Position numbers and translations under genes: made by a program. Of a stretch of DNA of 64,000 nucleotides, positions 45,413-63,430 are shown in pieces (the stretch's first letter is position 1; the number at the start of each line of letters is the position of its first letter). This stretch comes from Bernardetia sp. ABR2-2B. GTDB taxonomy: Bacteria; Bacteroidota; Bacteroidia; Cytophagales; Bernardetiaceae. The stretch spans positions 3,700,001 through 3,764,000 of the forward strand of contig NZ_CP147020.1 in NCBI RefSeq assembly GCF_037126435.1. The letters run 5' to 3'. The notes below the pieces were generated by a model. That model was given only the letters and a program-made list of their open reading frames with translations. It was not told the origin of the DNA and did no database searches.

Positions 45413-45675
45413 ATTTATTTTCTATTTATAAGTAAGTTTCGTTTATCCAATTCTAATAATCTTATTAAAATCTTGGTAATATAGCTTTCTATACGTTTTT
45501 TGAAAGGAAATAGTTTTTTGACTAAAATATAAAGCGTATATCCAACTTGATTATTGATTATGCAAAAACTCCTCACTCTCTTTTGAGAAGAATAAGAAGT
45601 TTTGAAATAATGACCAGTTACACAAGTCTAAGTCCAACAGAGGAGGAAACTGTACAACCCAAAAATAGCAAATAC

Positions 45676-45762
45676 AAAAAACACGGCTACAAGCCGAATA
45701 CATATAAATCACTCGTTGAAAACGAGCGATAGCAATTTTTGGGTAGCTGAGAAAGGACAGGG
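45676..45762 (-). repeat. Dispersed structured repeat, copy 1 of 4
   Basis: The repeat contains hairpin CGGCT-ACA-AGCCG (45684-45696) and hairpin CTCGTT..AACGAG (45712-45726), and ends GCGATAGCAATTTTT, GGGTAGCTGAG, AAAGGACAGGG. Copies at 58814-58874, 60860-60955 and 63314-63405 have the same order. The wider flank back to about 45425 also matches the flank of copy 2. Confidence 0.85.
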
Positions 45763-45820
45763 TCACTCCTTTTTTTGATTGGAATGAGGAATTACAAAGC
45801 GTGATGCTTAAATACATTTA

Positions 45821-45840
45821 GGTTCGTAAGACTACGAACC
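45821..45840 (+). other. Perfect hairpin at the left end of the IS110 element
   Basis: GGTTCGTAAGACTACGAACC is a perfect 8-bp stem with a 4-base loop. It sits between two copies of TTTAGGTT (45817-45824 and 45841-45848) and may be the promoter-proximal 5' stem-loop of the predicted bridge RNA or an end-recognition structure. Confidence 0.55.
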
Positions 45841-45900
45841 TTTAGGTTTGTACTGACAAAAATAGATGTAATTTCTTATCTTGTATTTAAGAATTCATCT

Positions 45901-46060
45901 AGCAGATAGAGAACCTAAACTGCGAACTAGATTTTAAAATCTATCATCTGAATAAGCCTCTATCTGCTTTTATTCAATCAGAAACTCAAATAGAATTCGG
46001 AGAGCCTTTATTTCCAGTAAAAGCCACCTCATTAGTTAAGGTTTTAAGTTGGATTGAATA
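45901..46060 (+). ncRNA. Predicted IS110 bridge RNA: two stem-loops with large internal loops
   Basis: Stem-loop 1 has an 11-bp perfect base stem, AGCAGATAGAG (45901-45911) with 45958-45968. Above it is an internal loop of about 16 and 14 bases and an upper hairpin TAGATTTTAAAATCTA (45928-45943). Stem-loop 2 has a 9-bp base stem, TATTCAATC (45971-45979) with 46052-46060, large internal loops and an upper hairpin near 46004-46024. Two adjacent stem-loops with internal loops ahead of the transposase is the arrangement of target- and donor-binding loops known in IS110 bridge RNAs. Transcription is inferred, and the RNA ends are unknown. Confidence 0.6.
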
Positions 46061-46103
46061 GTGATGAATACTATTTATTTACCGACCACTAAATTAGTTT
46101 TTT

Positions 46104-47117
46104 ATGCAGACTTACCAAAATTTTATAGGCATTGATGTAAGCAAAGCGCATTTGGATGTTGCTTTAATTCAAAATGCAAAACGTGTTTCTCATACACAAA
46201 TCAAAAATAATATAGAAGCTATTTCAGCTTATTTAGAAGAACTAAAAGGACAAATAGATTTATCAGAAACTCTATTTTGTTTAGAATCAACAGGTCATTA
46301 TATCAATTTTCTAGTAACTACTTTAGTTAGTTTTGATTGTTCTATTTGGGTAGAAAATGCTTTGCAAATCAAAAAATCAATGGGAGCAACCAGAGAAAAA
46401 AATGATGAAATTGATTCCGTAAGAATTGGTTTATATGCTTTTCGTTTTCAAGACCAAGTACGATTATATAGCCCTGTCAATGAAAAAATCACTGTTTTGA
46501 AGACTTTACAGACCTTGCGAAAAAAACATGTAGTTCATAGACAAGAGCTAGAAACCTATGCAAAAGAAACAAAAGCATTCAGTAAAAAAGCTATACATGA
46601 AGTCATCGATCAACATACACAAACCTTGTTAGAGTATTTAACTCTACAAATAGAAGCTATTGAAAAGCAAATGTTAGAAATTATTCAGAACGACCAAGAG
46701 CTAAAAGAAATCTATCAGCTTACTACTTCTGTAACAGGTGTTGGAAAAGTAACAGCTATTCATTTGATTGTGATGAGTGAAGGGTTTACAAAATTTGATA
46801 CAGCCAAACAACTGGCTTGTTATGCAGGAGTAGTACCTTTCGAACGCTCCTCTGGAAGTTTTAAAGGAAAAGCAAGAGTATCAAACAGAGCAAACAAAAC
46901 ACTCAAAACAGCTTTACATATGTGTGCCTTATCTGCATCAAGAGCAAAAGGAGAATTGAACGACTACTTTATAAGAAAAGTAGCCGAAGGAAAAAATAAA
47001 ATGAGTGTCATTAACGCCTTGCGAAATAAAATTATTCAACGTGTTTTTGCCTGTGTCAAAAACAAAATACCTTATGATAAAAATGGACTAAATTTTAACA
47101 ATTTTTCTAAAGGATAG
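46104..47117 (+). CDS. IS110-family transposase (DEDD recombinase)
   Basis: The 337-residue protein begins MQTYQNFIGIDVSKAHLDVAL. The RuvC-like DEDD acidic residues are in GIDVSKAHLD, LESTGHY and KNDEIDSVR. A coiled region (about 130-200) precedes the C-terminal transposase domain, with TSVTGVGKVTAIHLIV, LACYAGVVPFERSSGS and ALHMCALSASRAKGEL, whose Ser is the probable catalytic residue. The protein looks intact. IS110 recombinases use an RNA encoded in the element to choose donor and target DNA. Confidence 0.93.
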   Translation: MQTYQNFIGIDVSKAHLDVALIQNAKRVSHTQIKNNIEAISAYLEELKGQIDLSETLFCLESTGHYINFLVTTLVSFDCSIWVENALQIKKSMGATREKNDEIDSVRIGLYAFRFQDQVRLYSPVNEKITVLKTLQTLRKKHVVHRQELETYAKETKAFSKKAIHEVIDQHTQTLLEYLTLQIEAIEKQMLEIIQNDQELKEIYQLTTSVTGVGKVTAIHLIVMSEGFTKFDTAKQLACYAGVVPFERSSGSFKGKARVSNRANKTLKTALHMCALSASRAKGELNDYFIRKVAEGKNKMSVINALRNKIIQRVFACVKNKIPYDKNGLNFNNFSKG

Positions 47118-47267
47118 GATTGGTTATACCATAGAATTCAGAAGGAAAAATATAGAAAAAGTAGTATTAGAGAAGTTTTAAAATAAAATTAACTTTTTAG
47201 TGTTTATATTTAATTGCAAAAATAGCTTGTTCTCACGAAAATCCAGTTTTTTTGCTTCTCATTCTTT

Positions 47268-58512: not shown

Positions 58513-58813
58513 TTTCTACTATACTTTATGAGGGCTTCTATGAACTGATATTGAATTTTCAATGATATTTATTTTATATTGGCTACAACCTGTGTATTCT
58601 ACGACATTCGTTTATTTCTCATTTGTAAGTTTCGTTTACCCAACGTTATTAAAATCTTAATAAAATAGTTTTCTGAGTCATATCTATATCATTTACAATA
58701 TAACAAAAAAATAGAAAGCAGAAAAAACTCTCTACCCTTTTTTGATAAGAATAAGAAGTTTTGAAATGAAGGCTAAAATAAAACTGACTACACAAATCTA
58801 AGATTTGAAAACT

Positions 58814-58874
58814 AATAAATCACTCGTTAAAAACGAGCGATAGCAATTTTTAGGTAGCCGAGAAAGAGCAGGGG
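58814..58874 (-). repeat. Dispersed structured repeat, copy 2 of 4 (lacks the first hairpin)
   Basis: The copy has CACTCGTTAAAAACGAGCG, GATAGCAATTTTTAGG, TAGCCGAGAAAGAGCAGGG but not the CGGCT-ACA-AGCCG hairpin. Its upstream flank (58625-58813) matches the flank of copy 1. Confidence 0.8.
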
Positions 58875-60769: not shown

Positions 60770-60859
60770 AAGTTTTGGTTTTATAGATACTTAAAAACAC
60801 AAATCTAAGATTTGAAAACTGATAAATCGTAGTCAAAGACAATGGTTAGCAGAGAATAT

Positions 60860-60955
60860 CAAACACAAAAACCACGGCTACAAGCCGAATACATATAAAT
60901 CATTCGTTAAAAACGAGCGATAGCAATTTTTGGATAGCCAAGAAAGAGCAGGGGG
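60860..60955 (-). repeat. Dispersed structured repeat, copy 3 of 4
   Basis: It contains CACGGCTACAAGCCG, ATACATATAAATCATTCG, TTAAAAACGAGCGATAGC and GGATAGCCAAGAAAGAGCAG. The TAGCC near its 3' end can pair with GGCTA of the first hairpin, an alternative fold shared with the other copies. Confidence 0.85.
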
Positions 60956-63313: not shown

Positions 63314-63405
63314 AAACACAAAAACCACGGCTACAAGCCGAATACATATAAATCACTCGTTAAAAACGAGCGATAGCAATTTTTGGATAGCCGAGAAAGG
63401 GCAGG
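63314..63405 (-). repeat. Dispersed structured repeat, copy 4 of 4
   Basis: The copy carries both hairpins CGGCT-ACA-AGCCG and CTCGTTAAAAACGAG, followed by GATAGCAATTTTTGG and ATAGCCGAGAAAGGGCAGGG. It lies between the ApeA-like gene end and the DUF4177-like gene start. Confidence 0.88.
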
Positions 63406-63430
63406 GTGACTTGATAAATGATAGGTAGGT

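What the first reader, a model, noticed from the sequence alone, without database searches (positions are those of the whole stretch)
45815..46103. Candidate bridge RNA encoded in the left end of an IS110 element
Seen: 11-bp and 9-bp base stems (45901-45911/45958-45968 and 45971-45979/46052-46060), each closed by internal loops and an upper hairpin, lie just upstream of an intact DEDD transposase. Known: IS110 elements encode a bridge RNA with two such loops, one pairing with target and one with donor DNA, and in the IS110 group it lies in the left end. Inference: this is the bridge RNA of a Bacteroidetes IS110 member. A new recombinase plus guide pair could be of interest as a system.
Basis: partly seen in the sequence, partly recalled or inferred. 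Interest (0 to 1): 0.75.

Follow-up and report, generated by a model that had tools for sequence, protein, structure and literature searches.

The report
Bridge RNA of a Bernardetia IS110
This stretch of DNA encodes the likely guide RNA of a small jumping gene of the known IS110 family: one RNA loop matches the element's own end, the other matches the place where it landed, and related copies with changed loops sit in correspondingly changed places.

Summary
The two stems exist as described and covary across eight related left ends. The real element is 45840-47139 (1300 bp), with one shared C at 45839/47139. It sits at the 3' foot of a dispersed hairpin repeat, of which copies without an element exist.

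The first internal loop matches the target: left guide 45919-45927 is 8 of 9 with the left flank, right guide 45945-45950 is 5 of 6 with the right flank. In the second loop 45990-45998 equals the element's right end, 47131-47139.

Across relatives, guides track targets: left n=17 and right n=15, each 0 of 100,000 permutations, though not all elements are independent. The window and its 97%-identical sister differ at 13 of 228 left-end positions, 7 of them in the 15 guide bases. That sister, L002, does not fit its own flanks.

Verdict: a new member of a known kind, an IS110-group element with a left-end bridge RNA, in Bacteroidota (Bernardetia). The natural retargeting series and a core fixed only as one C are of specialist interest. 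No transcript data exist here, and the junction promoter is uncertain.

The parts
45820..45839 (+). Left target: 3' foot of a dispersed hairpin repeat (GGTTCGTA..TACGAAC), host DNA; left target 9-mer 45831-45839, core C at 45839
   Evidence: 43-bp exact copy without an element at G000:C1:2665823-2665865 (-); similar copies in G006
45840..47139 (+). Whole IS110-group element, 1300 bp, preceded by C at 45839 and ending in C at 47139
   Evidence: Common ends of nine complete copies; copies of the repeats without an element carry a single C
45843..45850 (+). Possible -7 promoter half TAGGTTTG, joined to a TTG in the right end (47120-47122) only in the circular form; weak
   Evidence: TTG-N20-TAGGTTTG in 9 of 9 joints rebuilt in a script, TTG at N17-22 in 0 of 9 integrated left junctions; G at -10/-9 is virtually absent in Flavobacterium johnsoniae promoters
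45863..45901 (+). 5' stem-loop of the bridge RNA
   Evidence: Helices 1-2; one compensatory pair (L017)
45901..45968 (+). Target-binding stem-loop (first stem, internal loop, upper hairpin 45928-45943)
   Evidence: Helices 3-5; four pairs of the base stem have changes on both sides; upper hairpin 77.1% paired
45919..45927 (+). Left target guide, 9 nt ending at the core C
   Evidence: 8 of 9 identical to the left flank, the ninth a possible G.T pair; best match in the first 235 nt of the left end
45945..45950 (+). Right target guide CATCTG
   Evidence: 5 of 6 with the right flank CAGAAG; complementary over 6 of 6 to CAGATG of a repeat copy without an element in G006 (read)
45970..46061 (+). Donor-binding stem-loop (second stem and upper hairpin)
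   Evidence: Helix 6 (92.5% paired, no change on both sides); upper hairpin with compensatory pairs
45990..45998 (+). Left donor guide ATAGAATTC
   Evidence: Identical to the right end 47131-47139; changes together with the right end in relatives
46032..46041 (+). Probable right donor guide region (TTAGTTAAGG), partner of the left terminus CTTTAG
   Evidence: Conserved in relatives; inferred, not tested
46104..47117 (+). IS110 recombinase, 337 aa; D11, E61, D101, D104 and S250 present
   Evidence: Pfam; alignment to IS621 8wt6, E 2.2e-21, and ISCro4 9t56, E 5.5e-22
47118..47139 (+). Right end; left-donor DNA ATAGAATTC at 47131-47139

Best explanation
It is a complete IS110-group insertion sequence whose 264-bp left end encodes a bridge RNA of about 200 nt (5' stem-loop, target-binding loop, donor-binding loop). 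By inference from IS621, the recombinase excises the element as a circle whose joint reads ...ATAGAATTC|CTTTAGG... The bridge RNA then pairs its second loop with that joint (45990-45998 with the right end) and its first loop with a hairpin repeat (45919-45927 with the left half, 45945-45950 with the right half). Strands are exchanged just 3' of a shared C, leaving C at both junctions. Shown here: anatomy, ends, sites without the element, covariation of stems, and correspondence of guides with targets and with the donor end. Inferred: transcription, RNA-protein complex, circle, chemistry.
For: Ends. Sites without an element; L011's two flanks joined over one C read exactly as an uninterrupted repeat in the same genome, CACTCGGCAAAGCCAAGC|GACAGCAATCTT (L071; flanks). 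Stem covariation: 280 of 304 cells paired (92.1%), 15 cells changed on both sides against a shuffled mean of 5.7 (0/500), slid controls 32-49% paired. Guide versus target in the genus: left 12 of 5040 permutations, right 1 of 120, the true pairing itself. Wider set: left n=17 and right n=15, each 0 of 100,000; right guide 6 of 6 in L017, L041, L027, L005, L040, L022, L029. Left donor guide 8 of 9 with the own right end in L041, L039, L005, L023, L022, L026, L035, L029, where guide and end change together in L005 (CTAACATT) and L026/L035 (ATGGAAAT). A model built on six copies of the genus finds the RNA within about 105 bases upstream of the matched recombinase frame in 14 of 27 more distant loci at E<=1, 10 of them at E<0.02. 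Recombinase.
Against: No transcript data. Three of 12 left flanks do not pick out the guide position as best match (L002, L013, L019). L002 fits its own flanks only 4 of 9 and 4 of 6 and carries a 22-bp insert in its donor guide. Two weaker covariation measures are not striking: 6 pairs changed on both sides (27 of 500 shuffles as high) and 13 further pair types (158 of 500). The base stem of the donor loop has no change on both sides. Folding energy alone is unremarkable. In the wider permutations some elements share a target (L017, L021, L041; L026, L035), so they are not independent. Some single elements score little or no better than with foreign targets (left: L002, L019, L038, L040, L042; right: L002, L039). 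In one search L021 and L038 show at best 6 of 9 for the donor guide, L027's best place is not its likely end (that one scores 7 of 9), and L044, L040 and L042 gave no donor guide. 13 of 27 distant loci gave no model hit. The joint promoter has G at -10/-9. The right donor guide is untested.
Confidence: 0.95

Rival explanations
1. The stems are a structured 5' leader (attenuator) that only regulates the transposase mRNA; resemblance to target and donor DNA is incidental.
For: It lies directly upstream of the ORF on the same strand; no separate transcript is shown; [quoted passage not shown]
Against: Loop bases track each element's own target and donor end, which a leader has no reason to do; the guide columns are the least conserved part: mean commonest-base frequency 0.63 and 0.69 against 0.90 for the rest.
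Confidence: 0.03
2. A bridge RNA that is now dead in this copy: a single relic that can no longer move.
For: Only one match in its genome at E<=0.001; its target has one non-identical base on each side; its sister L002 has an interrupted donor guide.
Against: Intact ORF with the catalytic residues, intact ends and guides, donor guide 9 of 9; a copy at 97% protein identity lies between other flanks in G001.
Confidence: 0.2
3. The left flank likeness comes from insertion next to hairpins for another reason (DNA structure), not from guide pairing.
For: By eye most genus copies sit at hairpin feet, L010's flank included; L004's joined flanks also form an inverted repeat (CGCTTC..GAAGCG).
Against: Structure alone does not explain why the bases of each flank fit that element's own loops better than those of other elements; L017, with no evident hairpin, matches 9 of 9 and 6 of 6. 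Hairpins were not searched at the distant targets.
Confidence: 0.03

Closest known systems
IS621 and its bridge RNA (IS110 group, E. coli; PMC11208160, PMC11208158)
   Same: DEDD/serine recombinase homologue; bridge RNA in the left end with 5' stem-loop, target loop then donor loop; 9-nt left target guide ending at the second core base; left guides match the top strand and the right target guide its complement; palindromic repeats as targets (REP elements are named as IS110 targets)
   Different: Recombinase only distantly related (E 2.2e-21); the base before the crossover is C instead of T (NC core instead of CT); right target guide of 6 nt counted from that C; Bacteroidota host and a non-sigma70 candidate promoter
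ISEc21 seekRNA (IS110 family; PMC11187229)
   Same: Upstream non-coding region, bottom-strand match 5' of the top-strand match, circle with abutted ends, natural redirection reported in a relative (ISMch6)
   Different: Different target (within IS3-family transposase genes); here several redirections within one genus
ISCro4 transposase (PDB 9t56)
   Same: Best solved sequence relative of the recombinase (E 5.5e-22)
   Different: Left ends not compared here; its enterobacterial origin is recalled

Membership tests
IS110-group insertion sequence | Recombinase with DEDD RuvC-like domain PF01548 and C-terminal PF02371 with conserved serine | tested here: met
   (D11, E61, D101, D104, S250; which IS621 residues are the DEDD ones is recalled, S241 is named in PMC11208158)
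IS110-group insertion sequence | Left non-coding end longer than right end, bridge RNA in the left end (opposite in IS1111) | tested here: met
   Left end 264 bp, right end 22 bp; RNA in the left end
IS110-group insertion sequence | Scarless insertion at a short core, no long target duplication | tested here: met
   Repeat copies without an element have one C where the insertion has two
IS110-group insertion sequence | Circular intermediate with abutted ends | not testable with these tools
   Only hints: L038 and L039 show end-like sequences abutting CTTTAG
Bridge RNA | 5' stem-loop plus two stem-loops with internal loops, conserved by covariation | tested here: met
   donor base stem nearly invariant and so uninformative
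Bridge RNA | First loop pairs with both strands of the target | tested here: met
   by sequence; exceptions L002, L013, L019
Bridge RNA | Second loop pairs with the donor: left donor guide | tested here: met
   by sequence; not found for 5 of 14 distant loci, and in L027 only at 7 of 9
Bridge RNA | Second loop pairs with the donor: right donor guide | tested here: inconclusive
   Only a partial match read by eye; terminus too conserved to test
Bridge RNA | Promoter rebuilt across the joined ends drives the RNA | tested here: inconclusive
   TTG-N20-TAGGTTTG in 9 of 9 joints, but unfavourable G at -10/-9
Bridge RNA | Small RNA of about 177 nt that binds the recombinase | not testable with these tools
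   No RNA or binding data
IS621 subgroup | CT core dinucleotide | tested here: not met
   Base before the crossover is C in 12 of 12 genus left junctions, the base before it A, G or T
Rfam family | Match to any curated RNA family | tested here: not met
   None at gathering score in the window or at E<=5 in 45700-46200

The most novel reading that the evidence does not exclude
A clade of bridge recombinases in this order with an NC core, in which only one base (C) need be shared by target and donor, has been retargeted repeatedly in nature among different hairpin repeats and other sites by rapid change of 15 guide bases. That would make it a natural series of reprogramming experiments and a source of recombinases with a looser core rule than IS621.
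Probability: 0.45. Interest if true: 0.5.

Novelty: new member of a known kind. Interest (0 to 1): 0.4.

Why it matters
It is an independent, purely genomic test of bridge-RNA logic in a phylum not named in the main text of the defining paper ('Bacteroid': 0 occurrences). It has well-defined ends, sites without the element, and related copies whose guides and targets differ together. The clade offers recombinases with another core base for testing core rules, and shows how quickly target guides change in nature.

Tried and rejected
Rejected: a leader-only role and structure-only targeting (see rivals). The joint promoter was first taken as strong and downgraded after PMC6847099 section 14. On checking this report I withdrew the statement that L004 and L010 sit away from hairpins: L010's flank is a hairpin and L004's joined flanks form an inverted repeat; the confidence of that rival was raised from 0.02 to 0.03.

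Papers. PMC11208160: sections 4-7 and 12 plus passages. PMC11208158: passages. PMC11187229: outline with abstract, sections 12-13. PMC6847099: section 14 and passages. PMC9723704: passages. Other papers: search listings only. Searches for print on this element: 'Bernardetia'+'transposase' 0 papers; 'bridge RNA'+'IS110'+'Bacteroid' 1 review, listing only. Subscription journals are mostly not held, and ISfinder was not available.

Counts and drops. One search uses seven guide types for the left permutation (L020 shares L019's guide; the other L003-type copies were scored apart) and five for the right one (L010 and L019 lack a right end). Its twelve flanks include L008's inner junction, which copies its own guide. 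One search covered 27 loci besides the window (L005 same genus, L007 same family, L021-L045 same order), the best-scoring loci given, not all their matches; of 14 distant loci with a model hit, L027, L039, L023 and L022 had no left boundary by the CTTTA rule and were left out of the left test; L021, L044, L038 and L042 had no right end by the motif and were left out of the right test. L039's right side looks like an abutting second left end and was kept, scoring 3 of 6. The right-end motif was written after seeing the donor guides, so it favours ends that match the donor guide; it does not look at target bases. In some searches three hits lie on the opposite strand over the same hairpins (window minus, L023 plus, L027 plus).

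Full report
What is there. The ORF 46104-47117 is an IS110 recombinase, the only match to itself in the genome at E<=0.001. Its closest solved relatives are ISCro4 (9t56) and IS621 (8wt6). D11, E61, D101 and D104 align with identical residues of IS621, and S250 aligns with the serine that I take for S241, since the chain numbering of 8wt6 appears to be shifted by two (S241 is named in PMC11208158, passages; the DEDD positions of IS621 are recalled).

Ends. I compared the window with L002 (97% protein identity), five copies in G004 (L003, L008, L011, L013, L015; 98.8-99.9% identical to L003 in the aligned DNA), L004 (=L018), L017, and left fragments L019, L020 and L010. All twelve start CTTTAGGTTTG right after a C, and the nine complete ones end CATAG(AA/TT)TTC. 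This gives 45840-47139 (1300 bp), with the C at 45839 repeated at 47139. The left flank is a dispersed hairpin repeat. A 43-bp exact copy without an element sits at G000:C1:2665823-2665865 and reads ...GACTACGAAC|AGATATT; copies in G006 read ...TTACGAAC|AGATGG and similar. These alignments run only 2-13 bases past the insertion point, so they fix the point and the single C but not the full right half of the repeat. A longer case is L011: its joined flanks read exactly as an uninterrupted repeat in the same genome (CACTCGGCAAAGCCAAGC|GACAGCAATCTT in L071).

Structure. Folding energy alone is not exceptional. On eight related left ends 280 of 304 cells pair (92.1%), 15 cells are changed on both sides (shuffled mean 5.7, 0 of 500 shuffles), and sliding the partners drops pairing to 32-49%; two weaker measures are not striking (27 and 158 of 500 shuffles as high). 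Compensatory changes are concentrated in the first base stem; the second base stem has none. RNAalifold, left free, returns the same stems and finds 10 of 54 pairs with changes on both sides. No Rfam family matches. A model from six genus copies finds the same RNA within about 105 bases upstream of the matched recombinase frame in 14 of 27 more distant loci at E<=1, 10 of them at E<0.02.

Guides and targets. The left guide ACTGCGAAC (45919-45927) matches the left flank ACTACGAAC 8 of 9, and the difference could be a G.T pair. The right guide CATCTG (45945-45950) is 5 of 6 with the right flank CAGAAG, and 6 of 6 with the CAGATG of a repeat copy in G006. In the genus: L017 9 of 9 and 6 of 6; L004 7 of 9 and 5 of 6; L010 7 of 9; L020 8 of 9; L003, L011, L013 and L015 5-7 of 9 and 5-6 of 6. 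Against: L002 4 of 9 and 4 of 6; L019 5 of 9. Among twelve left flanks (including L008's inner junction, a copy of its own guide) the guide position is the best match in the first 235 nt of the left end, both strands, for nine; the misses are L002, L013 and L019. Permuting targets among elements: left 12 of 5040 and right 1 of 120 reach the observed sum. With the distant loci added, taking the best match anywhere in the loop strand: left n=17, 104 against a mean of 73.9, 0 of 100,000; right n=15, 79 against 49.3, 0 of 100,000. Some elements share a target and are not independent (L017, L021, L041; L026, L035).

Donor. ATAGAATTC in the second loop is identical to the right end in the window and in L017; the L003 and L004 types have ATAGTTTTC in both places; L002's loop is interrupted by 22 bp. 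Farther out, eight loci match 8 of 9 at a right-end position (L041, L039, L005, L023, L022, L026, L035, L029), the mismatch in all eight being at the C itself. In L005 guide and end are CTAACATTT/CTAACATTC, in L026 ATGGAAATT/ATGGAAATC, in L035 ATGGAAATG/ATGGAAATC, whereas the other five have ATAGAAAT in both, so guide and end change together. L027's likely end scores 7 of 9, L021 and L038 at best 6 of 9, and L044, L040 and L042 gave no guide. The right donor guide is inferred from position and conservation only.

Retargeting. The window and L002 differ at 13 of 228 aligned left-end positions, 7 of them in the 15 guide bases (hypergeometric 1.6e-6); L003 against L019, L020 and L010 gives 0.0018, 0.0013 and 0.0009. 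L002's guides resemble a different sequence of its genome (CTACGATCAAC at L012; CCAACTGGGG at L092 and L094; CTGGGG right of the remnant L016) and not its own flanks, but its full predicted target has no exact match there. Either its guide changed after insertion, or it was inserted by another copy's RNA, or its flanks were rearranged. I cannot tell which.

Core. In IS621 the left target guide ends at the second core base, a nearly invariant T (passages of PMC11208158). Here it ends at C in 12 of 12 genus left junctions; the base before it is A, G or T in the targets and T in the donor, and the base after it is A, G or T in the nine complete copies. I read this as an NC core. L026 and L035 carry an extra C at the left junction, so there the boundary is ambiguous by one base.

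Expression. Joining the ends gives TTG-N20-TAGGTTTG in 9 of 9 complete copies, and no TTG at N17-22 occurs in 9 of 9 integrated left junctions. This resembles the Bacteroidetes -33/-7 promoter (passages of PMC6847099), but G at -10 and -9 is virtually absent in Flavobacterium johnsoniae promoters (section 14). The promoter is therefore a suggestion only.

Verdict. The finding is real and its reading supported; its left boundary needs moving to 45840. It works like, and by the features testable here belongs to, the IS110-group bridge-RNA elements. It is a new member of a known kind, with a core base different from IS621.

Noticed in passing
window 45662-45740; 58807-58873; 60855-60953; 63314-63411: Copies of a dispersed hairpin repeat (CACGGCTACAAGCCGAATACATA...CTCGTT..AACGAGCGATAGC). 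In G000 32 of 40 scored candidates matched the 200-bp probe, which also holds the second repeat; repeats of this family are the sites of sister elements in G004.
   Followed up: partly
L008 1148-1235: A second, truncated left end ending in the left guide AGCCGAG directly before a full element: either insertion into another copy's own guide followed by collapse, or a slippage duplication at the shared CCGAGCC.
   Followed up: partly
L017 about 1277-1316: 20-bp tandem duplication that doubles the left target guide AACACCAAC within the target-binding loop.
   Followed up: no
L002 left end (donor-binding loop): 22-bp insertion inside the left donor guide of the nearest sister copy; possibly a broken bridge RNA.
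   Followed up: no
L012, L009, L014, L016: Four 3' remnants of the element in G001, holding only the end of the recombinase gene plus the right end; the repeated loss of the left part is unexplained.
   Followed up: no
L038 left boundary; L039 right boundary: Right-end-like sequence abuts CTTTAG (ATAGAAGTTC|CTTTAG; ATAGAAATC|CTTTAG), as a tandem insertion or captured circle joint would give.
   Followed up: partly
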